A stretch of 64,000 nucleotides of DNA from Antitrichia curtipendula. Lineage: Eukaryota > Streptophyta > Bryopsida > Hypnales > Leucodontaceae. Where the stretch lies: positions 13,516,001 to 13,580,000 of the forward strand of contig OX579642.1 of NCBI GenBank assembly GCA_951230915.1, written 5' to 3'. The notes under the pieces are model-generated. The model saw only the letters and a program-made list of their open reading frames with translations. It was not told the origin of the DNA and did not search any database. This document shows positions 3,822 to 50,622 of this stretch, piece by piece; positions within the stretch are counted from its first letter, which is position 1; each line of letters starts with the position of its first letter. The translations under genes and the position numbers were made by a program.

Positions 3822-3829
3822 ACAATATA
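3822..3829. repeat. Left target-site duplication of element A
   Basis: ACAATATA directly precedes the CAGGGTTGTC terminus. An identical 8-mer directly follows the inverted terminus at 23637-23644. Eight bases is the normal hAT target duplication. Confidence 0.9.
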
Positions 3830-3849
3830 CAGGGTTGTCTATCCGGACG

Positions 3850-4376
3850 TGACGTGGGCTTTTCATGTCCAGATGTCATGACGCGTCCGTCCTGACGCGT
3901 CACAGCCCGTCGCCGATATTGACGGGACCATCCGGAGCGCGGATGAAGTCTGTCCATTCTGCAACGGCGTCGGGCCGTCTCCTGTACGGTGACTCCGTCG
4001 CCAAATGGACATCCGTCTCTTGGACGGAGAGCCCGTCTGTGGACAAAGAGGCCGTCCGTTGGACGGAGAGTGGGTCGCTGGACGGTAAGCCATCCTCTGG
4101 ACGGAGAGTCTGTCGCTGGACGGTAAGCCGTCCTCTGGACGGAGACTCCGTCGTTGGACGGTAAGCCGTCCTTTGGACGGAGAGCCCGTCTCTGGATGGA
4201 ATTCTCGTCTCTAGGACGGTAATCCATCCCTTGGACGGCCTCTCCGTCCTCTGGACGGGAAACCGTCCCGTCCCCTGGACCGGAATATCACAGGACAAGA
4301 CAGTCGCCGCTTGGACGGTTTCGTTGGCAAGGCTGCGGGTTTAGGGTCCACCCCATCAGCCGTCACTCCGTCTAGC
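3850..4376. repeat. GGACGG block A1 (left subterminal array)
   Basis: This is a GC-rich stretch in an AT-rich context. Between about 4020 and 4200 it resolves into 19-bp units such as GGACGGTAAGCCGTCCTCT, alternating with GGACGGAGA-type units. Most units hold GGACGG near one end and CCGTC near the other, so each is a small imperfect palindrome. It lies between the element terminus and the transposase gene and is about 264 bp upstream of the ATG. It is likely a transposase or host-factor binding array, a promoter module, or both. ORFs read through it are artefacts of the repeat. Confidence 0.8.
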
Positions 4377-4377
4377 T

Positions 4378-4424
4378 GGGTTTAGGGTTTAGGGTTTTAG
4401 GGAGGGCTTCAAGGTGTATATTAA
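4378..4424 (+). promoter_or_regulatory. Candidate transposase promoter: telomere-like motif plus TATA
   Basis: Three GGGTTTAGGG-type units (4378-4402) match the plant telo-box motif. They are followed by GTGTATATTAAGG, with a TATA-like core at about 4417-4424. The position is just downstream of block A1 and about 220 bp before the transposase ATG. The role is inferred from motif and position only. Confidence 0.4.
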
Positions 4425-4535
4425 GGACTTCTGCCTATTCAAGATTACTTTCCCTTGCTAATTTTGCCTTTCCTGACTTGGTTGGAGTACAACCATTGCG
4501 GTAGAGCGAAGTCCAAGAAGAGTGTGTTGTGGTGG

Positions 4536-4559
4536 CACTTGTTGTGAGAGCAACAAGTG
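4536..4559. other. Perfect 9-bp hairpin in the transposase leader
   Basis: CACTTGTTG (4536-4544) and CAACAAGTG (4551-4559) are exact complements around a 6-base loop. It lies upstream of the ATG, in what is probably an exon or intron of the 5' leader. A pyrimidine-rich tract ending TGCAG at about 4605-4612 looks like a splice acceptor. Function unknown. Confidence 0.5.
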
Positions 4560-4639
4560 TTGTTTCCACATCACATTTCAAACAGAATACTAATCTTTTT
4601 TTTGGTGCAGGGGCAGGTAAAGGAGGACAGATAAGAGCA

Positions 4640-7600
4640 ATGGGTGGAACAAGATCACAGTGGGAACCTTGGTACACACTACAGCCAGATGGAAAAGTTG
4701 TTTGCAAGTTTTGCAAAGCTTTGCTAAGCTATCGAAAGGATCGGTTGCTTTTCCATTTGGGATATAGACGAAATGACACCCTCCTTGGAGTGAGAACGTG
4801 CATTAAAGTCAATGCAGCCATGAAGGTAATGTTTTTTAATTGTGGAGGACATATACCTACGGACACTTCGCATGGAACTGGACGCAACGTGGAAGTGATA
4901 TTACCATCAACGATACTACCAAGTGTAGTACGTGGTGAGCAACAACATGATGCTTCAATCTCGGCAAACGATGGAGGAGAAAACACTGGGGGGCAAAGCT
5001 CTCAAGTACGATCATCGGAGGCGCCCAACCCTAGTTTGACCCACAGTCGATCGATGAGGCAACTGTCTCTACAAGAAGGACTGGACGCATCAAACAAGCA
5101 AGTACTTGACAAAAAGTGGGCTAAGTTTTTCTATGAAGCCAATATACCATTCAATGTAGTGAGGCATCTTGCTTTTCTGGATGCAGTGAAATCAACATCG
5201 GAATCAAGAGTTGGCTACAAACCTCCAGCGTACCATGCACTTCGTACAAAGCTCATAAAATCTACAAAAGACGAAGTGGCAGCAATTGTAGCAGAGAAGA
5301 CGAGGACACCAATCCACAAATATGGCGTTACAATATGCTCTGATGGATGGGACAACGTTACACATCGACCATTGATGAATGTCATGTTGGCATGTACAAG
5401 TGGAGAGGTTTTTCTTGGATCGATAGACACAACAGGCGAATGCAAAGATGCTACTTACGTGGCTAATTGCATGGGTGATTACATTGACGAGGTAGGGGCA
5501 CAGAACGTGGTACAAGTTTGTACAGACAATGCAGCAAACATGTTGGCCGCTGGCACTCTATTACTTTGTAGATTTCCACACATATATTTTCAAGGGTGTT
5601 CAGCACATGCACTTGACCTTCTACTTGAAGATTGGAGAAAACAAGATTGGATTACAAGTATGGTCAAGAAAGCCAAGTCAATTGTGAAATACATTCGAAC
5701 GCATCACATGCCACTTGCAATCTTTCGACGACATTCTCCTAATCACGTTTTGAAAAATCCCGTTCAAACACGCTTTGCTACCATGTTCCTCATGATCGAA
5801 CGTTTGGTGGAGGTGAGGGAAGCAATAGAATTGACAGTCCACGATCCGCAGTGGAATGAGTACACGCGGAGATTGGCATCCAATCAAAAGCAAAGAAAAG
5901 CTAACGATGTGCGATGATATGTGCGAACGGATGAATTTTGGAGGAAATGTTTGAACTTTGTGCACATAGTGGAGCCCGTGTTGATTGCTCTTCGAGAGTT
6001 TGATGGCAAGCACCCGTGCTTAGACAAGGCATGGCTTGTAATGAAAAAGGTGGAAAAGCATGTTTTATCTTTGGAGGATCTACCATTTTCATTAGAGCGG
6101 AGATATGCAATTTCTGCCACCAATGATTTCTACAAGCGTTGGGACATGCTCAGGACAGATTTGCATTACGCTGGGGCTCTATTGAATCCCTTTTTACTTG
6201 ACGAAGTCATGCTAATGGATGATAATGAGGCAAGAGAAGCCATATTGAGAGTTTTGCGCAAATTGGCTGTTGGAGATCAAGCATTTGCTTCAGCTTTGTC
6301 TGAGTACCAAGCATTTAGAGATTGGCGAGGCATTTTCGGTGAACTTCCTGATGTTAACACCTTGAATTTGCAGCCTCACGAATGGTAGGACCTTCTCGGA
6401 GCCAGTGCTCGTACACTTGCACCGATTGCCAGAAAGATCCTCGCGCAAGTGTGTTCTGCATCGTCCTGTGAACGCAATTGGAGCATGTATTTGTTTGTCC
6501 ACAACAAATCACGCAATAGATTGACATCAGAGCATGCTGAGGAATTGGTTTACATTTATACCAATTCCAAGACTCTTAGAGAAAGGGCTGCAGCAAATCC
6601 AACAAGGTGATATACTGAAAACATGATGTCAGAGGATTCCATGACAGATGAATCTGATGGTCTAGACCGTGGTTCGGTTCTCTCTGATCCCAATGATGAC
6701 GATTCAGATGATAGTTCCAATGACGACGATGAGCCACCGTTTGATAGATTTCGTAGGGCGGGAGGAGTGCGTCCTCTAATTGATGCATCCGTATTTGACT
6801 TTGAAGAGGGGGATAACAACGACAATGTATACGAGGGACATCAAGGAAGTCCACCACGAATGCCACAAACGTGGAATGCTGGGCCAAGTGGGGGCAATAC
6901 AAATGAGGACGTTGTGGCACCGAGACCACTAAGTCCAGACCCTATGGATGTACAAGTTGATGCCACAATAGAAAGAGATGGTGTTGACGTTCAAAGAGGA
7001 CGTGAAGAAGACGTAGTAGTACCACCGTCATTGCCCATGAGGACTACCCGCAGTGAAGGGCCCCCTCAAGCTGGAGAAGCACATATGGCCCCTCCAAATC
7101 GAGTCTCGGTTGCACAAAGGCAAATGCCAATATTGGAAAATCTACAAATCCAAAGTTCATCAAGGCCATCTAGTTTCGACGTCCGTCCACACGAACCAAT
7201 TTCGTTGATAGGTACACGATTGGCTGGTATGGTGTCACAGCGTGTGACTAGAAATACGACTTCATTGCGGCCACCTGTACATGCCAATAATCGAAGGAAG
7301 CGTCCACAACCACAAGGTACTACTAGTGAACGTGTGAGTAGTAGAACGCGTAGAAGGCTGAGGAGGGAAGAAGCGGCTTCCCAACCATTTTTAAGAGAAG
7401 TTCAAACAGGAGGACCCAATATAGATGGCATTATGGACGCAATGGGCCAACGACCTCTTCGGACGTTGTCTTCTATAGCTCGACCACAACGAAACCGCAA
7501 TTCCGAGGCCTCCAGCGAAAGTGGTAGTGTACCATCCAATGATGATGGTGAATCCATTGGTGGTACTATAGGTGAAGATGGTGAGGTTCCAGGAGATAGT

Positions 7601-7720
7601 GATTACAGGGGGCCGGTGCCTCGACAAGGTCCACTCGAAGAAATGGGTGGTAGTGAACCAATAGTACAAGAAGCAAATGCAAATACTTCTATGCGCATTC
7701 TTAGGCATGGAAGACGTTGA
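4640..7720 (+). pseudogene. hAT transposase of element A (three in-frame stops)
   Basis: This would be the transposase that cuts and pastes element A. ATG at 4640 is chosen because it follows a splice-acceptor-like site and opens directly onto a zinc-finger region. From there one frame stays aligned for 1,026 codons, broken only by TGA at 5915, TAG at 6386 and TGA at 6608. Visible parts are a BED-like finger (CKFC at residues 22-25, His39); a DUF659-type core with SDGW (Asp235), CTDNA (Asp296) and CSAH (Cys320, His323); and the hAT C-terminal dimerisation motif SSCERNWS (about 607-614). A long acidic, basic and low-complexity tail follows. The related gene at 58504-61817 aligns without gaps across the stops. 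It has Trp where this copy has the 6386 and 6608 stops, which shows they are mutations. Likely inactive. Confidence 0.88.
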
Positions 7721-8997
7721 ATGTTTTTGAAAAGACAATAGGGTCTTCATGTTTTCAAATTCAATAGTTTTAGCGGCTCAATACCTTGCATATTGAAATC
7801 AGCATTAATATGAAATATGACTTTTGTTCCTTTCATTCTCATAGAACTGTCTTTTCTCTTGCATTTGCCTCAACATACGGAAAAAATGTTTTTTACAACA
7901 TCTAACCGTAAGATTTTATACTTCACATGTTTTTTATCACGTGGTAAAAATTTCATGAAGTTTGACCGAATAGATTGAAAGATATTAGCATTCAAACTTG
8001 GAAAAACTAGTTTTCTGAATGCTAGCTTTGTAATTTCAGATTAACTTTCACTGAGTGTGATTTATGGAAAATTGGGCCTTCGGAGCACTATTGTTTTTGA
8101 ATTATTTTTTGAATATTCAAGAATCAAGGTCAAAATTTGAAAGAATTATTGCAATTGGAAACTATGTTTGCAATCCAAATAACACAGTGTGGTGTTTTTT
8201 TCATCTATGTTTTCTTTTTTTCAAATTTCATTAAAATTAAAATTATAAAACTATGTTTTGTGTTCATTCATTCATTTATGGCCCTAGTTTCAGATTATTC
8301 TCATACATATTATAATTGATAAAATTTGATTTCCACGTTTAGCTTTATAAAATCACAATAAAATCAATTTTCCATTGAAATTTCTGGAAAAAAAAAGCAT
8401 AAATAGAAAATGAATTCTTACGTATGTTGAAAACTATTAAAATATTATGCTGATTTTCAATAAAAATATAAATTTGGTTTGATAGTCAAATTTGACTTCA
8501 AGCTTTTCTTTGTGGTTGTTTACTAGTTTTGGGCATGAAAAATTAAATAAACAATTGAAAATTTTTCTGACTAGAAATCTCTATTGATATTTGTACCTCT
8601 TTTAAAAAACTAAAAATTTAGAATCTCTTGAATTGTTTTTTCTATTTTTACTTATTTATGGCATGAAGTGCAACAAAAATGTTGACAATTACAATTTTGC
8701 ACAAAACTAATTGAAATTTCTTGTAGTGATATACAATTCAAAGTTTTTAGTACTAAAGATATAAGATGTGTGCTTACACGCAATTTAAATGATAAAGTTA
8801 GGGAAGACAAGAAATTTTTTACAACTCAATGTTTAGGTAAAATACGTTTATAACTTTATATAAACCAAAATGAGTACAAAATGCATTGAAGCCACAAAGT
8901 GTGCTACATTGCTATGGATGTCCTCAAGCCCATACTATAATAACTGCATCTACTAAATAAACACTAATTTTGCAACTACATGGTAATACACTATTAT
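7721..8997. other. AT-rich spacer with an R2 fragment
   Basis: No gene. About 7880-8050 matches the internal core of repeat R2 (the 'CACGTGGTAAAAATTTCA' and 'ATTAGCATTCAAACTTGG' phrases), but I see no R2 termini. The rest is featureless AT-rich DNA between the 3' ends of the convergent transposase and kinase-like genes. Confidence 0.4.
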
Positions 8998-10659
8998 CTA
9001 ATCTTCATTGTGCGCCTGCTTTTCTTGAAGGTCTTGTTCTTTGCAGGCCTCGCGGTAGCAATCCATGGGTGGTGTCCAAAACGTTGGAGCACCACTTAGA
9101 CGTTGCACGACTCCAGTCACCGAGCGTCGTTGTAGTGGCTCCACCTTGTACAATTCATCCAACATGGTTTGAAACGTACCAAGTGCCGTAAGGTCCGGAA
9201 TCATATCTATATTTCCGCAATCTTTTTTCCATACCTTCATAGCCAATTTCCCTATGGAGTATCCGTCCGTGTGTATACTAACACACGGTGGCTTAATCCT
9301 GCGAGTAGGAGATGATGAAGTTCCTGTCTCTCCAATCAAGTACATTAACTCAGGAGCCACCCACCAACGTTGCGCTCGGGTTGCCTGAAACTTCCTTGGA
9401 CAATTGAATTGGTAAAGAGAAGGGGTTTCTTCGTTGATGCGGCTACCCATTCCCCAATCACATAGACCAATCCACACGGTTCTTCCATCATCATTTGGAA
9501 AATGAAGCATAATGTTCTCCGGTGTGATGTCGTTGTGCAATACAGAGCACTGTTGCATTGCATCCACAATGCAAATCATCGCCCACGCAAGTTCAGTGCG
9601 CTTGCGTCTATATGCCATGAGTCGTTTGGCTTCTTGCATTGATTAGGGAGTTGCATGGTAAGCCAACTCCCCAATTTCATCTGGATCTCGGTTCTTCTCA
9701 TCAAGGGTAAACATGGCGCCGAGAGTACCGCCATTCTACCATTGCAAATAACACTCCATGGTCATGTCATTTATAGCAAAGAATTTGATGACCCCTGGAT
9801 GCTCGCACGGACATACCAATGCCTTGATGGACAACTTCTCCCTGAACTTCTTCAATTCATCCACGCGCAAGGCTGACTTCCCAGCTAATTCCATATTCTC
9901 GGGAATATGTTTTGAATTTTGGACACATACTTTGCGCACTCTCCCATGCCCCCCTTGTTTGCTATGGCCAGACAAAGGAACCACCACCACTCCTCTTTCA
10001 AGGAAAACCACTCCTCCTGCAGCTTGTTGACCAAAGGCCAAGTTCTGACTTCGTTGAAACCACGGAGCGGAACGGATGTTGCTTGAAGATAATCCATGCA
10101 CTGCATCATGCCACCAATACACCTTCTTGTGCAACAAACTCAATGCTTGTTGTCTGGGCACTACACTCTTCTCAAAGCCTTTTATTTTTTCCACAACTTG
10201 GGCAAGGTTGAAGATACACGTTTGCACTTGTGACTCCAACCAATGATCGAAGCATTCTTTCGTGCGGTCTTCATGCCACTCATCCGCGCTCATTGTTGTC
10301 TAGAACATGTGGTGGAACTTTTGTTTAATTTTATCCACTCCCTGTAATCCGCATGAGACGTATGTTGAGTTCAACTGCAAAATCGAATACTGATCAAAAA
10401 ATTCCAACGCCACTTCATATAGTTTTTGCGTTGCACCCTTGCTTGGCCACTTCTCTGGATTTGTAGCCTTGTGCCTCCTTCGTTGTTTTTTCTTCCCCTT
10501 CGAAGACTCTCCGCCTCCCACAGCAGCTATAGACCCTTCTGCAGCTACGGCCTTTGAAATGGGCTCTGGTGATTCCGCATCCGGGTCCATAACCGGTGCA
10601 TTTCCAACACCTGTCCACCAATCATCAACCTTTCTCTTCGAGAAATCGCGACCAGCCAT
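8998..10659 (-). pseudogene. Kinase-like cargo gene of element A (three in-frame stops)
   Basis: This is a divergent eukaryotic protein-kinase-like protein of 553 codons from ATG 10659. One frame is broken by TAG 10302-10300, TAG 9738-9736 and TAA 9645-9643, with no frameshift. The N-terminal ~230 residues are basic and helical, without a recognised domain. The kinase-like part has a glycine loop GGHGRV (236-241), a lysine in ELAGK (~261), and the catalytic loop HND...N (HND 375-377, Asn382). DWG replaces DFG (401-403), APE is at 435-437 and DGYSIG at ~464-469. Lysine, both aspartates and the asparagine are kept, so the ancestor may have been active; the HRD and DFG variants are unusual. The relative at 51906-53390 reads Trp at the 9738 stop. 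Its 5' end faces GGACGG block A2. Substrate unknown. Confidence 0.8.
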
Positions 10660-10860
10660 CGTGACAGTAACAAGTAACAAATAATCAAAATGAAAGGAAT
10701 TAGGAATTCGGCTTCTACAAAGTGAAAAACCGCCCCCCTTATTCCTCAAAACAGCCTCTACCCAGCACCCACGCTCGCAAGCAAGGACTGCAACCAATCC
10801 AAGACAAGAGAGCACTGTTAGAGTAGGAGAGACTGTGGCGAAAGTACCCTAAAAACAGTC

Positions 10861-10880
10861 TTATATACCCATTTCACGTG
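10861..10880 (-). promoter_or_regulatory. Candidate promoter of the kinase-like gene (TATA plus G-box)
   Basis: On the minus strand CACGTG (10875-10880) is followed seven bases on by TATATAA (10867-10861), about 200 bases before the ATG at 10659. CACGTG is the plant G-box and the spacing to the TATA box is natural. The G-box lies exactly at the edge of a small inserted fold-back element, so the upstream array has been pushed away by about 200 bp. Confidence 0.55.
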
Positions 10881-11084
10881 GCCGGGGTGAACTGACCCCC
10901 TCGCTCGGCCCTCCGGGCCGACCCTGTTTTCCGCACCATTCCATTTTTGCAAATTATGAATTCATAAAGACCCCTAATTAGTTCAATCACATCAATAATA
11001 ACCCTGGATCGGCCAAAAAGAGAGGGCTTTTTTTTACATGCATCCCTGGTAAGGCCGAGCGAGGGGGTCAATCCACCCCAATCA
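10881..11084. mobile_element. Candidate 204-bp fold-back element (MITE)
   Basis: A 27-bp inverted repeat (10884-10910 and 11053-11079, two mismatches) has a core of GACCCCCTCGCTCGGCC. It is flanked by near-identical 8-mers TTCACGTG (10873-10880) and TTCACGTC (11085-11092). This fits a small hAT-type MITE nested in element A. The 7/8 flank match could also be chance. Confidence 0.5.
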
Positions 11085-11092
11085 TTCACGTC

Positions 11093-11480
11093 GACGGACA
11101 GGCCATCGAGAGGATGAACAAAGCGTCCAGGGCCGTCCAAGGCGTCCAGAGGACGGGATGGCCGTCCAGAGGGCCAAGCCGTCCAGGGGCCAAGCCGTCC
11201 AGCCCGTGGACTGGCCGTCGAGAGGACGGGAAGGCCGTCCAGGGGGGAAGACCGTCTAGCCCACGGACTGCTTGGCCTGAGAGGACGGGAAGGCCGTCCA
11301 CGGAGGGAGACCGTCTAGCCTGCGGACTGCTTGGCATGAGGACGGGAAGGCCGTCCAGCCCGCGGACTAGCCATCCAGGGGGCCAAGCCGTCCAGCCCGC
11401 GAACTGGCCGTCGAGAGGACGGGAAGACTTTCGAGAGACGGGAAGGCCGTCGAGAGGGCGGGAAGGTCGTCGAGCGGGCC
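11093..11480. repeat. GGACGG block A2, upstream of the kinase-like gene
   Basis: Irregular units of about 20 bp are built from GGCCGTC(C/G)AGAGGACGGGA and GCCAAGCCGTCCAG variants, in a sharply GC-rich island. Without the inserted MITE the block would start about 220 bp upstream of the kinase-like ATG. Proline- and arginine-rich ORFs on either strand here are repeat artefacts. Confidence 0.75.
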
Positions 11481-14012
11481 ATTCAAAACAGTGCTGGCCG
11501 AGTGTAATTCATTTCTAATCCTTGTTCGGAGAATTTTTCATTTATGTGGTTTGGCACTCTCGGACTTGTCAGGACAGGTGTCCTCCCTCTTAATCGAGCA
11601 TTAGACTACGGTGGCGGGTAGTTTAAGAGTGCTAACTTAATGTTCACACTTGTTTCAATTAGCGGACAAATAAATACCAGAGAAGACATTCAAATGCTCA
11701 AGAAACAAGGTTTATTGCTCATTTAGAATGGAATTATATTTTGTTGCACGTAAATAATGGAAAAAACATAGAAAAAACCATAGAAGGTCAAATTGAAAAC
11801 TTCTTAATGTCGGTCCTAGAATGCTCTATTTGGATGTTCATGTTAACATTTGATTCATTCTAATTGCACCCATTTTCACGAAAGTTGTTGGCATTGGGCA
11901 ATGTTTTTTTTACAAAAATCCCAGAATCTTGCAATCCCTTAAAATAATTTATATTTTGTAGGGCTCAAATTCGAATTCAAATGAATTTTATCAATTATAA
12001 CTTGAACAATTTCACCTTTGGAATTATTGTATTTTGATTCCATCCTTCCCTGCATGTAAGTGCACCTGACAATTTAGTATTTTGTTGAATTTTAAACCCT
12101 GTCTACACTAATATACTAAACTCAAAGTCTCAAACGTACAAACATTCAATAACTTACTAAGCCCGGATCAAATATACAAAGACCAAGACAAAAACCACCC
12201 TCTAAATGCTCCAGTTAAAGGTAGTAAGCTTAAAACTCTGAAATGGTTAATTATGAAATAAGTGAAAGACCTCCTAAACAACATATGTCATATGCATATC
12301 ACTGATTAATGTAAAACATTGTTTTGGCTTTCCATTCGTACATTACAGAAAAAGAATGTAGCCCTATACATCTAAACTTAAGAATGTTTTACCTTCTAAA
12401 GATATTGTTATGCCGTTTTTTGGTGTCTTCAATATGTTTTATAAAACTTTGATTTTAAATCATTAATCTATTTTTTTCCAATTCAAACTTCAAAGACTAC
12501 ATCTCGATCAAGTTTTGCACTTGTAATGCCAACTAAAAAAAGGAAGAAAATTTTTCGTGGTTTCCGGTCCATGCTAGGTTTTGAAGTAAACCCTATAGGC
12601 CAATATCCTAAATCCCAAACCCTAAACCCTAAACCCTAAACCCTAAACCCTCTTCACTGTTGCAATTTTAAGAGTATTTGATGTTCAAGTTTATGTAACT
12701 ATAGCAAATAAGAGTGGATTGGTGTAATAAAATTAAAATGCAACATTGAATACATGAACTTGACATTTTTGTGGTCTCTATATTTTTTTTATGGCTTCTA
12801 AATTATAAAACAACTAACGGTGAATTATTATAGTTTTTCATATGGATTGTTTATTAATTGCTTATGTAGTACCGTATGTTAACCACTAAACTGACTAAAG
12901 TCCCAAGGCCTCTTTTCCATCCTATATCTGAAATAAATTGCCATTTCTATAGTAAAGAATGTTAAAAAAAAAATGAATGTGTTTAGGACTTTAGGCCTTT
13001 AAGGTGCAAATCTACTTGTAGTATGTAAGATCTCATACTAGAGTACTAGAGTAGTGTTCAATTGACCAGAAGAGATTTCACAAACTTTGCCTATATAGAA
13101 TTATAGATTGCAAGATATTTACAATAAACTTCAACCTCGGAACACCCAACGACATCATTTAGTGCCAATTTGATGGCAATTCAATCACTTCAATGAGATG
13201 GAAAGATTGTGGAAGCGTTCAATTCATTTTTCGGGGACCTTCCATGTTGAGTTACAAAGTGTATCCAAATGATTTTGTAGTCTTTCCGATATTTGCCTCC
13301 GCGTAATTTAGAGTTTAGGAAAAAAAAAAAAAAAAAAAAATGCTACTTTAGTGTATCTTGGGAAGTTGTTGCTCCTTACTCTAAATCTGAAATTTATCCC
13401 CCAAATTGATATTTTCTGAGTTTGAGTCTAACTATCAAGTAAAAGATCATTTTCTCTAGTTCCTATTTTATGTAAAATCCCCCAACACGACCCTAAAAAT
13501 GAAATTTCATTATTGCGATTTGCACTTCGAATGTGTTTTTAATGTCTACTACGTTTAGTACATTCTAAATAAATCATGAAATGGAAATTAAGTTTATGCT
13601 ATGATGGATTCTAATGTCATTATCCTTGTGATATAAGGTAAACCTGCCTATGACAGGCAGAATGATTGATTTGTTGTATTGCCTTTAGCAAAAATAATCA
13701 AATTTTTTCCATACAAAGACACATGTGAGAAATGAAGAACGCAACTGGAATTTTATTTTTTGGATTAATTGTGATTTTTTTTTGAATTTTTGAAGTGTAC
13801 TGTCCAGTAAGCCCAAAAGAATTTGTAGACTACCCCAAATCAGCAAAAAATTGTTTCCATGATGGTCATCTTCCCACTTAAAACAGTCATAACATTTTCT
13901 AAGATGGCTACAAGACTTTCTAACATGGACATGACATGAAGAAATAAAAAAACTGCTTTTTCCTAAAAATAAAAAATGAATTTTCAAAAAAATAAAAATA
14001 AAAATTTTAAAG
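11481..14012. other. Non-coding interior of element A
   Basis: About 2.5 kb of AT-rich DNA with no credible gene on either strand. It contains an interstitial telomere-like tract (12612-12651), an A-run of about 21 bases near 13320-13340, and otherwise unique-looking sequence. It separates the divergent 5' regions of the kinase-like and RING genes. Confidence 0.45.
12612..12651. repeat. Interstitial telomere-like tract (CCCTAAA)5
   Basis: Five consecutive or near-consecutive CCCTAAA units, the plant (Arabidopsis-type) telomere repeat. The tract is short and internal, so it is not a chromosome end. Similar short tracts lie at 4378, 54407 and 57558. Confidence 0.85.
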
Positions 14013-14590
14013 GGCCGTCCAGGACGTTTGGTAGGCCGTCTTGAGGACGGGCAGGCTGTCCCAGACCACGAACAGGCCGTCGAGAGGATGGGCGGGCCGT
14101 TCCCGACCAGCGACAGGCCGTCGAGGAGACGGGCACCCCGTCCTTTTGGACGGCCTTTCCATCCAAGAGACGGGTATCCCGTCGAGGAGACGGGTTTGCC
14201 GTCCACAAGATGGGTAATCCGTTGAGGAGACGGGTACGCCGTCCAGGAGACGGGTACGCCGTGCAGGAGACGGGTACGCCGTGCAGGAGACGGGTATGCC
14301 GTCCAAGAGATGGGTATTCCGTCGAGGGGACGGGCAATCCGTCGAGGGGACGGGCAATCCGTCGAGGGGACGGGCAGGCCGTCGACGGAACGGGCAGGCC
14401 GTCGAGGGGACGGGCAGACCGTCGAGAGGATAGAAAATCCGTCCGTCCAAGTCTCGGGCGGCGGTGTAATTATTTCCCGAACCTGTCGACGGCGCCCTGA
14501 ACCCGTTGACGGCGTCCCAACTTTATGTCGGACCTCTGTGGACGTATCGGCTGTCCATTCCAGGGCTGTCCCACGCCCTGGACGATCTGG
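14013..14590. repeat. GGACGG block A3, upstream of the RING gene
   Basis: Tandem 20-bp units such as AGGAGACGGGTACGCCGTGC and AGGGGACGGGCAATCCGTCG run from about 14160 to 14420, with looser copies on both sides. Each unit pairs GACGGG with CCGTC as an imperfect palindrome. The block ends about 280 bp before the RING-gene ATG. A TATA-like GTATATGTAA at about 14655 lies between them. Confidence 0.78.
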
Positions 14591-14867
14591 ATTCGGGGGG
14601 GGACAGGCTGATGTTATGTTAATTACCCTACCTAATCGGGTCGGTAATTGGGGGGTATATGTAAACTTTTTTGGACAGTTTACGTGCTTCCTCTTTTGAG
14701 TTGCACTGTCCGAGATTGAGAAAGCTTCGCTCTGCAATTTGAGGGGAAGTGTTATACATTTGACATTGTTTTGCCACATTTCAGTTGCCTTCACGCAATA
14801 GAAGGCAAAGCAAATTGTCATTGTATTCGCATACAGTATCGTGTGTGTCATTTCCCAGGTATCAAGA

Positions 14868-17132
14868 ATGGACGCAGAGGATGTAGCAGGAGGTTCGGGA
14901 CCTGGAGGTGACCCCCCAGGAGGTTTGGTACCTGCAGGTGAACCCCCTGGTAGAAGGAAGAGAGGAAACAGAGCAACCTTGGATTGGGGCACACGTAATG
15001 CCGAAGAGGTTATGGCAAAGCCTGGGTGGTTGGAGGCAGATGGCCCATGGACAAGAGTGATATGTCGTCAATATACAGATTGGGCCCACATCAACCGCCA
15101 TTGGCCACACGACCGGTACGAGGTGCACGTGAAATCTGGCGTGGTAAATATTGACCAGTGCCAACATCCGCACTTCAAGAAGAGGATGATTGAAGTATCA
15201 TTGGCACTTTGGGGGGCAAGATCCAAGAAAGACGGGACACTTTCATTGTGCCAAATGGCATATGCGGAGGTTTTTCTTGGCAAGGATGTGGACTGGAGCA
15301 GCTTTTTGGGCAAATCGCGGAATAATGCATTTCCAAACCGAACTCGCCACATTGCACCAAATCCTGCTGCGCCATTGGACAATCTACCAAATCTTGCCGT
15401 GCCATTGGCTGATGTCCAAAATGTGCAAATGGACGTGGTTCCACTGGCGGAGCGTCCAGGGACGGAGTTGATGGAGGTAGAAGTTGGTCAGGGCAGCGGT
15501 CCAGATGTCAACCAACAAGCTGTGATTGGTGGAGTGCAAGCTGACGGTGAAGAAGTAATTTGCTTGCACCAATTAGTACAAACACTGCAAGCAGAAAAAG
15601 AAGAAACATGACGGCAACATGCTGCAGTGTTGGAAGTTCATCATGCAAGGATGCGGGCCGTTCAAGATGAAAATGTGCGCCTCATCGCACGTGAAGCCGA
15701 GCTCGTAGAGCGTGAAAGGCGGGTCAGCACAGACTCAGTTCCACCACTCGATCTTGTAGTGGAACGTGCTACATACGGTGCAGATGAAGACACACCAGGC
15801 CTGAGCAATACATCTGAGTTTGTGCTGCAATCACGATCCACTTTTTCAAGTTCAGAAAGTGCCACATTGGATATTATGCGTGCACGTGCTGAGCGAGTTG
15901 AAGTAGAGCTTGGAAGTACTCGCACAAACATGGAAGAATTAACAAACGCCATGCGTGTTTTGGAACTTCGTGCCAACAACGCCGAGGCAGAGGTGGCGGT
16001 GGTTACTGCAGCTCGAACAACCTTGGAGCAGACCATGACCGCATTGAGTGCTGAAAATATGCGGTTGGTTCAAAATCCTCAGACGGAGCACAGGCTGCTT
16101 CAAATGTGCAATATGAAGTTGACATGCATCTTAGCGCTAAAAGAGGCTGAGCAAATGCAACGTGAAGTGAGGAGAGTGGCTGCAGAATTCAATGATGGCG
16201 GTCAACGTTATTTTGGCTTGACCTCGTGGCCTCGGGTGGCAGAAATGTTCACCGATGATTTACCAACATATAGGGAGAATTCAAGCATCAATTGGAATGC
16301 CCGTCCAGACTTGGAATTCTAATATAATATCGATCGCCAACGGTACGGGCCACCCAACAACAATGGCATTACGCCACTAGTGTGGCCTTCCCTTCCAGAT
16401 TTTGTAAAAGATAGAACAACATGTATAATGTGCCAACAACCGTTTGGCCCCGAGGGTGGATGGAATCTTGGTACATGTGGCCATCTATACCACCCCGTGT
16501 GTCTTATTCCACACATGATCACCAGAAAGAGATGTGCGCAATGCAGGGCTCCATTTCATGCACGACTATACAAAACGTTTGGTTTTGAAGACCACATGCC
16601 TGAACATTACGAGTACAATGAAGAAAATTTACCGGGCCCCGGTAATAGAGTACATTGGGGGTCCGACATGACATGGCTTTGGAAGTGGGGCCACCACAAC
16701 CGACACCTCCCGGCAGGAACGGTGGCTGACATACCATGGACGAGTGACAACCAAGTGACAAAGGTGATCAGGAGGGTGTTTGGAGACAGTGATCCAGGGC
16801 GTGGACTATATTTTGGTCAGATTGCCGGTGGACATTGGGACCCAGAACGCTTAATTTTAATACGCGCACCACATCTACAACGCATCATGTTTAACTCTCA
16901 AGGCCAGCCAGTCGGATTTGAGGGGGAATTGAGCTATAAGGAAAAAATGGCGTACACTGAAGACAATACCTTCCATGAGCCAGCCCTCGTGAATGACATT
17001 TTTTTCCACTTACATGATAGATACGATATAGAAGCACTTCAGCTTCTGAGGACTTTCGAATCACAAGAAGAATTGCAACGATTTTTGAGAAATAGCATAG
17101 CACGCGGCGTTGTAATCGAAGATGTAGACTAG
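14868..17132 (+). pseudogene. RING-H2 coiled-coil cargo gene of element A (two in-frame stops)
   Basis: One frame of 754 codons from ATG 14868, preceded by a splice-acceptor-like TTTCCCAG, with TGA at 15609 and TAA at 16320. Three parts are visible. Residues ~40-150 are a Trp/Cys-rich domain (PGW, VICRQYTDW, KDVDW) shared with the gene at 49254-50352. A long Glu/Arg/Leu-rich coiled-coil stretch follows at ~250-445. A RING-H2 finger begins near residue 519: C-x2-C, then C-x-H-x2-H-x2-C, then C-x2-C, the standard eight zinc ligands in order. About 180 further residues have no recognised domain. RING-H2 proteins are usually E3 ubiquitin ligases; a role in turnover of the transposase or a host repressor is inference. 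Block A3 lies upstream. The stops suggest this copy is dead. Confidence 0.78.
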
Positions 17133-17397
17133 ATTGTGTATAACTAGATAGATGTATAGAATAAAATACTGGAAGTTGTACAAAGTGAACGTATGTAATT
17201 ATGTAAAGCCTTTATTAGTTTACCATGTACTTCAACAGATTTATGAAATATGTACATTTATTGTTTTCTTTCCACCTCGTGTATTGTTGCTTTGCCTTTG
17301 TCAATTTTTGTAATCTATTGGACCTTTTTGTAATAGTATAGAAGAAGCTTGTATGCTTAGATGGTAGGTAAAAGAGTGTTCTATTTTATTTTTGGTG

Positions 17398-18033
17398 AAG
17401 CCCTAAAGTCTGAAGTCCATTTTTTGGCCCAAACCACCCTAAACCACCACTTTTGCTATGTTCACCTATGAATTAAATTTTCCAATTTATTTTATGAATC
17501 GAACCAAAGGATCTTGTTCTCCACTTGTCTTAGATGACGTGATAAAAAATTTGTGATGTTTGACTGTATGGATTGAAAGTTATTAGCATTCGAAGTGAAA
17601 GAAACAAATTTATTTTAAGAAGTTGCTAGGATTGCCCGCTCCACAAAAAACCCATAACTTTTCCATTCCTAATCCAAATGGGATGAATGAAAGCCTTCCA
17701 TTTAAAAGAAAATACAATCCAACTGGAAAAAAAATATACAAATTTGTATTTCATTTTTTTGTGGATTTTTTTGTCTACCCGGAGTCTTGGACCGCCCGGT
17801 GTCCCGATCTCCCTTGTTTGAGGTTATTGTGGCATACCCTTTGCTCCTAGGCACCGATTGGAATAGAAATTGTATTATGAATAAACTCATAAGTTTATCT
17901 ATCATTCCATGTTATCATTCTTATGAAAAAGTTTTCAAAAGTTTCAGTAAAAAATGAGATCATAGGAGCCTATCGAAAATCCATTTTGTCCCTGGCAGAA
18001 AGGACAATGAGAGTATGTTACTTTAGGGGCTAA
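17398..18033 (+). repeat. Dispersed repeat R2, copy nested in element A
   Basis: It starts near GCCCTAAAG at 17400 and ends at TTTAGGGGCTAA. It carries the R2 core ('AGGATCTTGTTCTCC...', 'ATTAGCATTCGAAG', 'CCATTTTGTCCCTGGCAGAAAGG'). It sits just downstream of the RING gene. No coding capacity. Confidence 0.5.
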
Positions 18034-19506
18034 GAAATAAAAACAATGGAAATTCTTTACCAAAGCAAGAAATAAGTAACAAATTATTTGATTGCTTCAT
18101 ATTTGATGAAATCTCCTTTAAGTCTTTAGAATTAAACCAAAAAATAATTCACGTTTTGTAACTTTTGTTCTATTAGTTTTAATGTTTTTTTAGTTGGACT
18201 ATTGATTGACTACTCCCTCATGTTTATTTTTAAATCCAAAGTTTACAAATTAAAGTATTGAACATTTTCCATTTTTTCTCAAATAGCATTATGGAAATCA
18301 AATGATCAAAGTTTAATATCTTGCAATTACTAACTTGATAAGGTCACACTACATGAAATTTATTTGAAAATCAATTGAAATAAATGACTTTATGAATGGC
18401 GATCCTATACTTGAAAGTCTTAAATTGAATAGATTCTAATTTTTTTTTTTTCATTTCATTTCAAGGTGAACATGGAGAAATGCCAACTTGGATTTTTTTT
18501 TGGCAATAATTAGCATAGGGCCTACATGGCTACATGGATTAATATTTTTGAATTTCTTGCCATATAGTCAGTGTAAAATCAATTTAGCAACTTCTCTAAT
18601 TCGAAATTCAATAACAAACTTTAATCCCTAGAATCCTAGATGCCCAAGGCATGTTTTGAGCTTCTACAAATTTGCTCTAAATTGAACAAAATGTTAACAT
18701 TTTGATTATGTGACTAGGCGTATCAATTAAAAAAAATTGTAACCATATAAATTCAAACAAGACATATTAGGGGCTCATAGGTTGGTAAAACACAACAATA
18801 TCACTTATAGAGTAAAAGATTATAATGTTTGAACATGAGGGTGTTAAAACTACAAAAATGATGTGAAGTCTTCCAATCCTCTTTTCAGTTTTCACAAGTA
18901 AAATTAAAAAAGTTTTAGACCACAAAAATATGAGGTTAAATTGCCGAACATGTATAACCCCAAACAATTTATGGCTTTTAAAAATATACTCCATATTTTT
19001 TTTTAAATTAAAAAAAAATTTGAATGTGATTTTTCCTCCAAGATCTTGTGTTTTCGAGGCACATTTCCAAAAGCTCTCAATGCTACAAGAAGTCAAGATT
19101 GCAATGGGTACCCTTGTACAAAGTCTTGAAACGAAAAATCACTATCATTTATTTTTAAGAATAGACTATTGATGCTATAACTAGACTTCAAGAAGAACTT
19201 ACTAAAAATAGCAACTTGGATACTACTAAAAATAGCAACTTGGTTAGGTTTTATTTAACTTCAAAGTTTTGCCAACACCAGATTTGGGTGCTTCGAGCAT
19301 TTAGGCAAAAAACCCAATCCCACCAGTCCAGTCTATTTTCCCGTCTACAGAACCGTCTAGTTACCCGTCCAGATGCCCAACCACCCATTGTGAGCTCCCA
19401 ATTTGTCACTTGGGACTCGTAGAATTATTTTTTTGGAAATTTGCAATTTAAAGTTAAGAAAAATATACAAAAAGCCATAAAAAGAGTGTAGAACCAAAAT
19501 AGGGTT
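18034..19506. other. AT-rich interior of element A with a mini CCGTC cluster
   Basis: No gene. At about 19340-19385 there is a short run of CCGTCTA/CCGTCCAGATG units like the right-end 12-bp array. It may be a relic or translocated piece of the subterminal repeat. The rest is AT-rich and featureless. Confidence 0.35.
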
Positions 19507-21370
19507 GTAACATACCCATTATAGTATTTGGTCTAGATTTGTGTTTAGACTTAGAATCCCACCAAACCGGGCCCAAAAAGAGGTAGAAAGAACGAAACGG
19601 GTGGATTTGTAGGATTCAAGTCACATAGGCCCCAAAGGGCTAAATCCCACCATGAATGTGGCAATTCATGGCTAAGTCGGTCCGAGGGATCCACAACGAG
19701 GCCACTAGGTCGGGTCCTAGAGTTAGGTTTAGAAATACACCAAAACCCCGATTGTTAGCATGCAGGAGCCACTAACGCAAGACCGGGGCCGTGGAGGAAT
19801 CCACAGCCCAAGGATGGTGTCCTAGGGTAAATCCCATGCCAGGAGTCCAACGACAAAATCGATTCGCCAAGATTCCCCTATCTGCAAAAGATTCCCGCAC
19901 CATCGATAAACTCAAGGAGATGACCAATTCATCTCCACTGACCAATTGTGCCAGGTACGGAAACGCACCTGCACATCTTTCATGTGACCCCATGAGAGGT
20001 CCTGTGAAAAAACCCGTCATCTTCCGACTTGTAGAAGAACCTTTTGCGGATGGTCAACCCTGGTAACCTCCAACGGGAATTTCATGGAAATTACCCAGGT
20101 TGCCAGAAAATCTCACTAAAAATTAGACTATCTTGTTTTATGTTAATAATGCGCTCCGTGAAGTTTCGCAACATTCCGATAGTGGCAAGTACCCGAACCG
20201 GCGAGATTCCTCGAGAATTAATCACGTGGCGGGGTTCCCGCCACGTTGACCGGCATTCCGGGACCATACGACGGCGGAACGAAGTCAACCAAGAGTCTTT
20301 TCCGACTCCCTCACACCTACCGGAGACCCTAAGCTATTTACATTTCTCAAAATAGGAGACCCCCAATATCTAGGATTTTACCACGGTTTAGTTTTTGAAA
20401 ACTAAATTAGCCTACAATGGTTTTTTGTCCTCGGTACGGGGGGTAAAGGGGTCTTAGACTAAACACGGCGATCTGGAGCCAATGGCGCAATCCGTTTGAC
20501 GATTGGAGTAATTCTCCAAAAGTTAGGAGGTTGGTCCAGCGTAGATAAGTAAAAGTAGTTTTTAGGGATTAGGATGAAAATCTTTGAAGATGAGGATGAA
20601 AATCCAAGTTGATAAGGTTACTTTAGAACTCTTGAGGGGAAGGTGGGGCCTTGGAAACCTATTTAAGGTCCCCATTTTTCTCTCAAGAACACCCCCAAAT
20701 CTTGTTTTGGGTCCGTGGATCCAACTTATGTTGGGATTTTTGGCGTTTTAGCCAAAAACCCTCTACGGTGTTTTTGGAGCACTTTTGGCTCCCTTTGTTG
20801 CTCTATTTCAAGCTTCCTTTGGAGGTCCTTTTGGGTCCTTCTACCTTACCTTGCCTTGCATCCTTGTTGTGAGTGAATGGGTCTCCCCTATACTTGTGTG
20901 ACTTCTTAGGCCTTGTACTAATCCTAAAGTCACCCCCCACCGTACCTTGGCGATGCCGCTTTGGGGGGCCTTTAGTGTATGAGAATTTTCCCGTTATCAT
21001 TGACCTTGTATGCATGTGTGCCCCCGTATCGAGTCCTAACCGGAGTTGTCCTTTTCATTGTTGGTTGTAAGTGGGCCCATCCCCCGGGGAACGGCGAAGC
21101 TCTGAACCTGTGACCAGCCTTAGTCCTAAAGTACGTGTTAAAAAACAAGCCTTAGACGGCGGAGCTTTGAACGCAGGAGTATCATAAGTCCTAAAGTTGG
21201 TGTTAAAACCAATTCTACGGCGAAGCTTTGAACCCTTATGTGCTCTCGTTCCAAAGTCTAGAGTCCGAGACGTTCTCGGAAAAGTCCAAGGTTTAGCGTC
21301 CGAGATTAAGTCTAAGTTAAGAGTCCCCCCACCCCTTGTGAGCCGGCGTTCGTAAAACAAGAAACCACAC
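19507..21370 (+). mobile_element. Candidate LTR-like segment nested in element A
   Basis: A stretch of more balanced base composition begins TGTAACATACCC, a start common in Ty3-type plant LTRs. It has a TATA-like CCTATTTAAGG at about 20656, followed by a leader-like region. From about 21080 to 21240, three phrases of the type ACGGCG(A/G)AGCT(C/T)TGAAC are each tied to a 'CCTAAAGT' phrase. I found no second LTR, primer-binding site or coding domains, so this may be a solo LTR or something else. Confidence 0.3.
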
Positions 21371-21470
21371 CAAAAACCGGGGAAAGTTTACCAAAAATCC
21401 GATTTAGATTTGCTTAGGTGGGTTCCCTTAAGGAACCCAAAAAAGTCGGGTTGAGTCCCTGGGAGGTTTG

Positions 21471-21700
21471 GTCCAGTGCAAGGAAGTCGAGGTGAGTCCC
21501 TGGGGAGTTGGGGTGAGTCACAAGGGGTCTGGTCCAGTTGCAAGGGAGTCGGGGTGAGTCCCTGGAGTCACAAGGGGTCGAGAAGGTCGCTGGGGAGTCG
21601 GGGAGGTCGCTGGGGTGGTCTGGCAGGTCGCTGGGGTGGTCCGGGCAGGTCGCTGGGGGTCTGAGCAGGTCGCTGGGGTGGTCCAGGGAGTCCAGGGCTG
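21471..21700. repeat. Tandem repeat, ~22-bp GGTCGCTGGGGTGGTC units
   Basis: Direct repeats of AGTCGGGGTGAGTCCCTGG-type units are followed by at least four copies of a 22-bp unit around GCAGGTCGCTGGGGTGGTCC. The composition is strongly G-rich on the plus strand. ORFs here are repeat artefacts. Confidence 0.75.
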
Positions 21701-22469
21701 GGGAGAGAGAGAGAAAAAAAATAAAAACAAAGAGAAAGGTTGGAATTAGTGGGAGAAAGGTTGGGATTAGTGGGGGTTAGGAGAAGGCTAAAGGGGTTGA
21801 AATCAAGGGAAAGAAAGCAACCACAAAAGGGAGGAGAATAGGGGGAAGTAGAAAGAAGGAATAAGTCGCACCTCCATACCTGCATCAAACAACTCTCAAC
21901 TCTCACCAAAATCACAACTATATGCAATGGAGGGAGGTTAGTGAGTCATAGAATTAAATAGGAGAAGGGGGAGAGAGACGATAAATAGTGCCCTAGGCTT
22001 AGCTAAATAGGTGTTAGAAAGGAAATCTTGAGGATTCATAGTGACCATTAGGAAGTAGGATTAGAATGACACGAAGACAAGGTTGTGTAAGAGGTTAGGA
22101 GGGATATTAAAACTTCTTGGGGTTTGAATCTATAGTTGTAAGACACCCCATCAAAGCTTAGGTAGAATAGTGTTAGTGTAGAAAGAGAGGAAGGGAAAGA
22201 AAAGGAGAGAGAAGAAAGGAGGAGGGAAAGAAAGAGGTTAGATTGCACGGGTCCTAATTTTCGAAACATAAGTGATGAAATTGGGAAAAAGTCCCATCAC
22301 CCAAGGGCCACCATGGAGTATGGGAATGTACGCACAAATGCGGACGAGCGTATTTCCGACACCGGAAGTGACGAGATGAGTTCTTGAATCCATACTTGGC
22401 GTTGTGTTTTTTCCTCTTTAGCATTGATCTCCTTAATTAGCCCTTTCCACATGAAAGGTACACCGTAAT

Positions 22470-22820
22470 AAGAAAAGATAAAAATTAGAAATAGAAGTTA
22501 AAATTTAGAGTTACAATTAGGAGTAAAAATTTAGAGTTAAAAATTTAGGAGTAAAAATTTAGAGTAAAAAATTAGGAGTAAAAATTTAGAGTTAAAAATT
22601 AGGAGTAAAAATTTCGAGTTAAAATTAGGAGTAAACAATTAGGAGTTAAAATTAGGAGTAAACATTTAGAGTTAAATTTAGGAGTAAAAATTAGGAGTTA
22701 AAATCAGGAGTAAACATTTAGAGTTAAATTTAGGAGTAAAAATTAGGAGTTAAAATTAGGAGTAAACATTTAGAGTTAAATTCAGGAATAAAAATTTAGA
22801 GTCATATTTAGAAGTCAGGA
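22470..22820. repeat. Tandem repeat, ~24-27-bp TTAGGAGTAAAAATTTAGAG units
   Basis: More than a dozen imperfect copies of TTAGGAGTAAAAATTTAGAG / GTTAAAATTAGGAGTAAACA units. It is purine-rich and AT-rich, with no coding potential. Confidence 0.8.
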
Positions 22821-23215
22821 ATTAAAGGAAAAAACTTAATTAGGGTTAGCCGTAAGATTGAAACTTCCGGGAGAAGTGTCAACCCTCCAAAAATTAGTAT
22901 TCAACACTTATAGAAGGAACATAAGGTTCCCCGCTCACGTAGTTAAGGACGTTAGAAATGACGCCAACTACCCAGCCAACCCTATACATAGGATAGACAG
23001 TTAAAGAGGTAGGAATTACCAATCACCTTTGCTCATCACAGTCAGCTTGCGAGTTATACATGCAATTCTAGTAGTATTCGCTGCCATCCACGACACTCAG
23101 AAAACGTTAGCACAAAAGATCCATTGCTTGGAAGGCACAGTGGACCGCGCTCACAACACCCCCTTATATTTAAAAAGGTGGATAAAGGCATAGAACTTGG
23201 TCGGTGTTCGCCCGA
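22821..23215. other. Non-coding stretch before the right-end array
   Basis: I see no gene or repeat here. A TATATTTAAAA motif occurs at about 23164-23174 just before the array, but there is no gene downstream for it to serve. Confidence 0.35.
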
Positions 23216-23636
23216 TTACCAAGGGTGGGTAATCTTGCGCCCACACCCGCCTATTCACTTACCCGTCCAGATGCCCGTCCACCCGCCTATCCAATTACCC
23301 GTCCAGATGCCCGTCCAGATACCCGTCCACACAACCGCCCCCCCTCCCGTCCACATGCCTGTCCAGATGCCCGTCCACCCTCCCGTCCACCCGCCCGTCC
23401 ACATGGTCGTCCAGTTTTCCGTCCAGATACCCGTCCATCACGCCCGTTCCGTGCCCGTCGACGGAAGCTCGCCCATCCAGTGCGCCCGTTGGTGAAGAAC
23501 GTCCATCCATTTCTGTAGTTTTCATCCTCTGTCAATGGTTCTCGTCCAGATTTCATCCTGATGGACGCCGGGGTTGAATCCTGACGTCCGTCCGGACATG
23601 CTGACGGACGGACAGGACGTGACGGGGACAACCCTG
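23216..23636. repeat. GGACGG block A4 and right terminus of element A
   Basis: Tandem 12-bp units of the form CCCGTCCANNTN (such as CCCGTCCAGATG) run from about 23258 to 23450. They are followed by unique subterminal sequence and the inverted terminus ending GGGGACAACCCTG at 23636. The outer ~330 bp, read inward on the minus strand, is nearly identical to the start of element C at 63404. The 12-bp period gives spurious 4-residue Pro-Val repeats when translated. Confidence 0.85.
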
Positions 23637-23644
23637 ACAATATA
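23637..23644. repeat. Right target-site duplication of element A
   Basis: ACAATATA, identical to 3822-3829, directly follows the terminus. Confidence 0.9.
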
Positions 23645-48647: not shown

Positions 48648-48655
48648 TGTATATG

Positions 48656-50352: not shown

Positions 50353-50622
50353 AGTAGGTAGAGCTATTTTAGTCGTTGTCTCACAATCGAGTGGGCCTTG
50401 GAATCTCTTGCCATTGGATTATGGAGTGTGGCAATCATAGTACAAAAATATGGGCATCTCGGCGAATAGCATTTACGTACTAAAATACTTTGATGTAAAT
50501 ATATTGTATTAAAATGTATTTGGAGGTTGGTACTTGGTATCATCATAGCGGTATCGTTCAAGTATCAATTGTATTGCTTTTCAATATAAAAAATATTTGC
50601 ATACGATGAAATTCTATTATCA

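What the first reader, a model, noticed from the sequence alone, without database searches (positions are those of the whole stretch)
3822..23644. A 19.8-kb hAT-type transposon with perfect ends and three cargo-scale genes
Identical 8-bp flanks ACAATATA and exact 10-bp inverted termini prove that the whole 19.8 kb moved as one unit. Inside are a transposase, a kinase-like protein and a RING-H2 protein. hAT elements are usually a few kb with one gene, so a cargo-bearing unit of this size is unusual.
Basis: partly seen in the sequence, partly recalled or inferred. Interest (0 to 1): 0.92.

Follow-up and report, generated by a model that had tools for sequence, protein, structure and literature searches.

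The report
Three-gene hAT transposon, many copies
The finding is a real mobile DNA element, but its kinase-like and RING-finger genes are probably not passengers: two distantly related families of cut-and-paste (hAT) transposons in this genome carry the same three genes, so the extra genes look like part of how the element lives and spreads.

Summary
Window 3830-23636 is one hAT insertion with exact ends and ACAATATA duplications. In the host genome (400 Mb, unnamed), 8 of 11 examined A-type copies have both ends with perfect 8-bp duplications, 1 has a one-mismatch duplication and 2 gave no pair. The normal length is about 16.2 kb; this copy holds a 3.86-kb insertion. The left-end 25-mer occurs 547 times, control 0.

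"Cargo" looks wrong. A second hAT family (B), also in this window, has 8-bp duplications and the same trio: DUF659 transposase, protein kinase, and a protein with a shared N-domain and a RING. Identities to A are about 39%, 26% and 29% (N-domain). A third kinase family sits beside an N-domain gene at the one locus read; no transposase was shown there. GGACGG arrays lie upstream of 7 of 7 A/B genes.

The window copy is broken. A neighbour shares six of its nonsense codons yet has its own duplication, so broken copies probably still moved.

Best reading: a multi-gene hAT lineage with core kinase and RING functions, perhaps anti-silencing as in VANDAL. Function is inferred; within-family tests showed no purifying selection.

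The parts
3822..3829 (.). left 8-bp target-site duplication ACAATATA of element A
3830..3839 (+). left terminus CAGGGTTGTC of element A
4013..4268 (.). GGACGG-type repeat array at the left end, upstream of the transposase gene
   Evidence: tandem repeat rows; motif counts on a canonical copy
4640..7720 (+). transposase gene, 1026 codons, DUF659; nonsense codons at 426, 583 and 657
   Evidence: 45 listed genomic matches, 92-100% identical
8998..10659 (-). protein-kinase gene, 553 codons; nonsense codons at 120, 308 and 339
   Evidence: 78 listed genomic matches, 90-100% identical
11155..11479 (.). GGACGG-type array upstream of the kinase gene
14033..14443 (.). GGACGG-type array upstream of the RING gene
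14868..17132 (+). N-domain, coiled-coil-like and RING-H2-like protein gene, 754 codons; nonsense codons at 248 and 485
   Evidence: (zf-RING_2 23.9 bits, below the curated cut-off 27.3); 59 listed genomic matches
19386..23243 (.). insertion of about 3.86 kb in the right subterminal region, absent from the canonical copies compared; nature not determined
23244..23459 (.). right subterminal repeat array
23627..23636 (-). right terminus of element A
23637..23644 (.). right target-site duplication ACAATATA
48648..48655 (.). target-site duplication TGTATATG of element B (partner copy beside C10:13600352, outside the window)
48656..63403 (-). part of element B (second hAT family, termini CAGGGTTGAC/CAAGGTTGAC); its left end lies outside the window at C10:13600352
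49254..50183 (+). B gene 4: short protein with the N-domain only (broken here; 365-codon ORF in copy B_C3)
51909..53390 (-). B kinase gene (494 codons; nonsense codons at 165 and 372)
54446..56131 (.). insertion of about 1.7 kb in element B relative to other B copies
   Evidence: alignment gap between positions 7272 and 8959
58791..61817 (-). B transposase gene (DUF659 and hAT dimerisation domain; one nonsense codon at 16)
62769..63403 (-). 3' part of the B RING gene, cut by insertion of element C
63396..63403 (.). target-site duplication GTGTCCCC (GGGGACAC) of element C inside element B
63404..64000 (-). right end of element C, an inverted A-type copy of 17,507 bp that runs off the window

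Best explanation
The feature is one broken, full-length copy of a high-copy family of three-gene hAT transposons. Shown: the unit has hAT-type termini and 8-bp duplications, has inserted many times as a unit of about 16.2 kb, and encodes a DUF659 transposase, a protein kinase and an N-domain/coiled-coil/RING protein; a second hAT family in the same genome, diverged to 26-39% protein identity, has the same trio in a different order. Inferred: the kinase and RING genes are not captured cargo but core functions of this hAT lineage, kept since before families A and B split. Inferred mechanism: the transposase cuts and joins at the termini; the GGACGG-type arrays at the ends and upstream of each gene are binding sites for an element-encoded DNA-binding protein (the transposase zinc finger or the N-domain), which couples gene expression and end recognition; the kinase and the RING protein (as a ubiquitin ligase) act on host or element proteins to keep the element expressed and mobile, most likely by opposing silencing. 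Products act in trans, so copies with dead genes still move.
For: Ends and duplications: A-type 8 of 11 perfect plus 1 with a mismatch; B-type 3 of 3 fetched and the window's own B. Rigid gene spacing, with few cross-family neighbours (transposase B to kinase A within 20 kb: 3 of 46). Same trio in A and B: transposase 38.9%, kinase 26% over about 480 residues, N-domain 29% over about 125 residues, and the RING stretch with a common FGPEG motif. Kinase A has the glycine loop, the AGK lysine, HND...N, DWG and APE. Open reading frames survive in both families and in database relatives. Arrays upstream of 3 of 3 A genes and 4 of 4 B genes, measured on one copy of each (circular-shift P 0.055 and 0.037 for genes hit, 0.011 and 0.024 for motif totals). 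A third kinase family has a divergent N-domain gene 3.7 kb away and arrays of a different motif. Elements A and C share six nonsense codons and have different duplications.
Against: Within-family substitutions fit neutral decay: with a null that keeps the mutation spectrum, no gene has significantly fewer amino-acid changes than expected (lowest P 0.054 and 0.101; kinase A singletons P(null<=obs) 0.98), so the raw dN/dS of 0.53-0.77 is not evidence of selection. No expression, binding, methylation or enzyme data exist here. Kinase B has VDP in place of APE, and its Pfam score (19.3) is under the cut-off of 31.7. The RING score of A is under the curated cut-off. The structure models were too poor to use (mean pLDDT 50.7 and 39.5). 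Gene order and orientation differ between A and B. The array statistics are modest. Two arrays (A right end, and B between transposase and kinase) have no gene directly downstream.
Confidence: 0.7

Rival explanations
1. Captured cargo: host genes for a kinase and a RING protein were picked up by a hAT element and are carried along, perhaps to the benefit of the host.
For: hAT elements that carry an unrelated gene exist, e.g. the 14-kb ToxhAT (PMC9594970, passages); the genes lie between the transposase and the right end in A; within-family variation looks neutral.
Against: The same trio occurs in two hAT families with 26-39% identity and in rigid positions over dozens of copies. The genes have no introns in the copies read. 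Database relatives of kinase and RING are few, unnamed, and resemble the element proteins over most of their length. Not tested: a direct search for single-copy host homologues.
Confidence: 0.1
2. The extra proteins serve the transposition reaction or its timing (for example phosphorylation of the transposase, cell-cycle coupling, turnover of the transposase) rather than opposing silencing.
For: Kinase A keeps its catalytic motifs. Near-identical neighbours exist (A and C 65 kb apart; 14 listed same-family kinase pairs within 100 kb), as expected if transposition is local and tied to replication.
Against: No data separate this from anti-silencing. Arrays of differing motif upstream of genes in different families resemble VANDAL anti-silencing targets more (PMC10398659, abstract and Introduction read).
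Confidence: 0.3
3. Self-restraint: kinase and RING limit transposase level or copy number and so protect the host.
For: Arrays next to each gene would allow feedback.
Against: High copy number (547 A and 278 B left ends) speaks against strong restraint, though not decisively.
Confidence: 0.1
4. Assembly error or chance nesting that joined separate elements into one apparent unit.
For: Some duplicated loci look like assembly duplicates (small contigs C22 and C282 give the same scores as loci on C2).
Against: Nine of 11 A-type copies at different places have the same order and length with their own duplications, B-type likewise, and there is a paralogous empty site.
Confidence: 0.02

Closest known systems
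Plant-type hAT transposons with DUF659 and Dimer_Tnp_hAT transposase
   Same: Transposase domains, 8-bp duplications and short terminal repeats, non-autonomous short derivatives.
   Different: About 16 kb with three or four genes; typical elements are a few kb with one gene (recalled). Named plant transposases found are only 27-34% identical to B.
VANDAL Mutator-like elements (VANA/VANB/VANC), with sequence-specific anti-silencing
   Same: Transposase plus accessory proteins; short-motif tandem repeats in the non-coding parts that differ between related families (PMC10398659, abstract and Introduction).
   Different: Different superfamily and different accessory proteins (kinase, RING). No VANC similarity was tested. 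Anti-silencing is not shown here.
Fungal hAT7 elements with TET/JBP, and fungal IS3EU elements with transposase, TET/JBP and alpha-kinase genes
   Same: DNA transposons that carry an enzyme gene; IS3EU has a kinase of its own in a conserved order (PMC12730594, passages).
   Different: hAT7 has 7-bp duplications and a TET/JBP gene. The kinase here matches Pkinase, not an alpha-kinase family, and is paired with a RING protein.
ToxhAT, a 14-kb hAT that carries an effector gene in fungi
   Same: A hAT of similar size with an extra gene (PMC9594970, passages).
   Different: There one gene is moved as cargo; here the same trio recurs in two divergent families.
MuDR/Ghost Mutator elements with a second reading frame
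   Same: Second genes such as mudrB; one Ghost element has a separate RING reading frame (PMC6446971, passages).
   Different: Mutator superfamily; no kinase named in the passages seen (0 hits for the word kinase).

Membership tests
hAT superfamily | 8-bp target-site duplication | tested here: met
   A-type: 8 of 11 perfect, 1 with one mismatch, 2 unresolved; B-type 3 of 3 fetched plus window B
hAT superfamily | short terminal inverted repeats | tested here: met
   CAGGGTTGTC (A) and CAGGGTTGAC (B)
hAT superfamily | hAT transposase domains | tested here: met
   DUF659 138.5 bits in A and 110.5 bits in B; Dimer_Tnp_hAT 36.5 bits in B, cut-off 21.4. In A the stretch between the second and third nonsense codons, where that domain should lie, was not scanned
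hAT superfamily | catalytic acidic triad of the transposase | not tested
   no residue-level comparison with a solved hAT transposase was made
Protein kinase | catalytic motifs (glycine loop, lysine, HxD...N, DxG, APE) | tested here: met
   for A and relatives P0001 and P0007; Pkinase 35.3 bits, cut-off 31.7. P0003 has HNN in place of HND
Protein kinase | the same motifs in family B | tested here: inconclusive
   GGYATI, AAK, HND...N and DWG present, APE replaced by VDP; the piece scanned scored 19.3, under the cut-off
RING-type ubiquitin ligase | RING-H2 metal ligands | tested here: inconclusive
   Cys/His pattern present in A, B and relatives, but Pfam scores 22.9-27.3 lie at or under the curated cut-off of 27.3
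RING-type ubiquitin ligase | ubiquitin transfer activity | not testable with these tools
   needs an enzyme assay
VANDAL / Mutator-like element | MULE transposase | tested here: not met
   the A and B transposases match DUF659 (and in B Dimer_Tnp_hAT), no MULE family
VANDAL / Mutator-like element | VANC-type anti-silencing protein | not tested
   no VANC sequence was compared
Cargo hAT (ToxhAT-like) | extra genes acquired by one lineage, not shared by divergent relatives | tested here: not met
   kinase and N-domain/RING proteins shared by families A and B

The most novel reading that the evidence does not exclude
This genome hosts a clade of multi-gene hAT transposons with a conserved kinase plus N-domain/RING module, each family with its own repeated DNA motif (GGACGG in A, CGGACG/GCGGAC with GGACGG in B, CCGCGG/GGTCGC in the third kinase family) placed upstream of its genes: an independently evolved, sequence-specific control and anti-silencing system in hAT elements, working by phosphorylation and ubiquitination, with target motifs that diversify between families as in VANDAL.
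Probability: 0.35. Interest if true: 0.85.

Novelty: new variant of a known kind. Interest (0 to 1): 0.7.

Why it matters
hAT elements are the textbook one-gene cut-and-paste transposons. A high-copy hAT lineage that keeps a kinase and a RING-type protein as standing equipment would show that accessory gene modules arose in this superfamily too, and would offer natural, family-specific sets of proteins and target repeats to test how a transposon opposes or tunes host silencing. It also corrects the cargo reading: size and extra genes alone do not show capture. In print I found fungal hAT elements with a TET/JBP gene and the effector-bearing ToxhAT, but no hAT with a kinase plus RING set in the listings of nine searches; those cover open-licence papers only.

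Tried and rejected
Cargo reading: rejected as the main account because families A and B share the trio. Purifying selection from dN/dS: raw ratios of 0.53-0.77 looked supportive, but a null that keeps mutation type and CG/CHG/CHH context explains them, so the claim was dropped; 496 of 635 singletons (78%) are C>T or G>A. In one search copy C was left out of the A set because of its kinship with A; B rests on at most four copies. Structure: both models were too poor, so no fold search was run. Solved structures: 0 hits for kinase relative P0001. Viral contigs: no relatives of kinase or RING. Third family: a transposase search with P0048 gave 41 usable places (one fragment row of 42 dropped), of which only 2 lie 15.8 and 17.6 kb from one of the 77 third-family kinase places that I entered (of 85 listed, 8 rows not entered) and a third 36 kb away in the other orientation: suggestive only, so the third family is not claimed as a hAT. 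Composite-transposon idea from inverted neighbour pairs (11 of 14 inverted, one-sided P 0.029): not pursued, because A and C have separate duplications. Solo-LTR idea for the 3.86-kb insertion in A: no TG...CA ends with a 5-bp duplication found in the stretch scanned. Host identity: not resolved.
Full report
What is there. Element A runs from 3830 to 23636 with exact CAGGGTTGTC ends and ACAATATA on both sides. Its left 15.5 kb aligns at about 95% to canonical copies; about 3.86 kb (19386-23243) is an extra insertion in the right subterminal repeats. Three intronless genes lie inside: transposase 4640-7720 (+), kinase 8998-10659 (-), N-domain/RING 14868-17132 (+). All are broken by nonsense codons: transposase codons 426, 583, 657; kinase 120, 308, 339; RING 248, 485. 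The decay fits methylation-driven mutation: 78% of the singleton changes in the A genes are C>T or G>A.

It is one of many. The host assembly has 400,189,583 bases in 303 contigs and no name. Protein searches score only the best candidates, so the numbers are lower bounds: transposase A 45 matches of 1836 candidates, kinase A 78 of 1438 (27 of the 78 have no stop), RING A 59 of 2452, transposase B 46 of 1843, kinase B 87 of 1380. The A left-end 25-mer with up to 2 mismatches occurs 547 times and the B one 278 times, with 0 for each reversed control. These ends include short derivatives. Among the 100 listed CAGGGTTGTC places on contig C1, 34 adjacent pairs face each other; 11 are under 1 kb apart and 5 are 15-21 kb apart, against 0 and 1 in the opposite orientation. 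Of six short ones fetched, five have perfect 8-bp duplications and one has a mismatch; one of the five shows no similarity to the A ends beyond the terminus.

The unit moves whole. I fetched ten A-type copies. With window A that makes 11: eight perfect duplications, one with one mismatch, two without a pair. The lengths of seven are 16,129-16,348 bp; C is 17,507 and A 19,807. Copy C (C10:13579404-13596910) sits inside element B: B homology stops at window 63404 and resumes beyond C with an 8-bp overlap, and two of three other B copies show the uninterrupted site with a single GGGGACAC.

Gene spacing is rigid. Transposase-to-kinase start distance is 6019-6078 bp in 30 of 45 listed transposases. 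43 of 59 listed RING genes have a listed kinase within 20 kb, all divergent, 3958-5316 bp apart. Both lists are capped, so a missing partner is not evidence of absence. 18 of 45 listed transposases have both partners in the lists, within 20 kb (kinase) and 30 kb (RING).

A second family has the same trio. Element B (termini CAGGGTTGAC) has perfect 8-bp duplications in three of three fetched copies of 16.1-16.5 kb and in the window, where TGTATATG flanks a B that is split by C. In transposase orientation B reads RING (+), transposase (+), kinase (+), and a short N-domain gene (-). Identity to A: transposase 38.9%, kinase 26%, N-domain 29%. 25 of 46 listed B transposases have a listed B kinase 6299-8358 bp away on the same strand. 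Gene order and orientation differ from A.

A third kinase family. A database kinase (P0010) finds at least 60 further kinase copies of about 61% identity to it, unlike A and B, plus smaller groups at 51-54%. The one 7.5-kb stretch read beside such a kinase holds a divergent 276-residue N-domain ORF about 3.7 kb away (32-39% to the A and B N-domains) and clusters of CCGCGG/GGTCGC upstream of both genes. No RING domain, transposase or terminus was found in that stretch, so this family is not shown to be a hAT.

Repeat arrays. GGACGG/CCGTCC occurs 83 times in a canonical A copy and 59 times in a B copy, about 20 and 13 times the base-composition expectation. At least four motifs lie within 900 bp upstream of 3 of 3 A genes and 4 of 4 B genes; circular-shift P is 0.055 (A) and 0.037 (B) for genes hit and 0.011 and 0.024 for motif totals. 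One array in A (right end) and one in B (after the transposase) have no gene directly downstream. These figures rest on one copy per family and are modest.

Selection. Raw dN/dS is 0.62, 0.72, 0.77 for the A transposase, kinase and RING, and 0.60, 0.53, 0.54 for B. A null that keeps spectrum and methylation context reproduces the observed ratios; no class is significantly low, and kinase A singletons tend the other way. So these copies decay neutrally after insertion. The case for long-term constraint rests on open frames and retained motifs between A, B and database relatives, which is an inference.

Broken copies probably still moved. A and C share nonsense codons 426 and 657 (transposase), 120, 308, 339 (kinase) and 485 (RING), differ at 14 of 3078, 2 of 1659 and 14 of 2243 sites, and have different duplications. 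Their ancestor was already broken, so one at least moved with products supplied in trans; gene conversion between the two is an alternative. Some of these codons are also hit in other copies (kinase 120 in two more, transposase 657 in one more).

Relatives elsewhere. Kinase: 12 database proteins, eight at 57-80% and four at 29-36%. RING: three, at 48-65% (only the best-sharing candidates were scored). Transposase: 45, of which 35 at 35-57%; the rows with an organism name are plants at 27-34%. In a quick tree the long transposases of A, B and 35 database proteins form one group (support 99; long-branch warnings were given). Their contigs could not be read here. None was found in viral contigs.

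How it most likely works. Shown: movement of a whole three-gene unit. Inferred: transposase acts at the termini; arrays bind an element protein; kinase and RING act on host or element proteins. The nearest model is VANDAL, whose VANC proteins bind family-specific short-motif repeats and remove silent marks (PMC10398659, abstract and Introduction). Kinase and TET/JBP genes in fungal DNA transposons show that enzyme modules occur in such elements (PMC12730594, passages). Anti-silencing against reaction timing is open.

Verdict. Observation confirmed; cargo reading not supported; a new multi-gene variant of hAT with a function that can be tested.

Noticed in passing
window 63404-64000 and L001, L002: An inverted A-type copy (C) is inserted in the RING gene of element B; A and C are 99.1% identical over the longest aligned 9 kb.
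   Followed up: yes
genome: Listed same-family kinases closer than 100 kb are mostly inverted (11 of 14, one-sided P 0.029), some with identical scores; local transposition or assembly palindromes could explain it.
   Followed up: partly
contigs C22 and C282 against C2: Small contigs give the same match scores as loci on C2 for B genes, which looks like duplicated assembly pieces.
   Followed up: no
window 31707-32629, 40893-41832, 50623-51563: A repeat of about 0.94 kb occurs three times (74-87% identical), one copy inside element B.
   Followed up: no
window 4379-4398, 12607-12651, 54406-54445: Short runs of the plant telomere-like motif TTTAGGG/CCCTAAA lie near the GGACGG arrays upstream of the A transposase, the A kinase and the B kinase.
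   Followed up: no
L037 3991-4821 and genome: A third high-copy kinase family with a divergent N-domain gene and arrays of another motif.
   Followed up: partly
window 49254-50183: Element B has a fourth gene that is a short copy of the N-domain without a RING.
   Followed up: partly
window 42455-42569 and 42823-43398: A 21-bp tandem repeat and a nearby 191-codon ORF of unknown nature.
   Followed up: no
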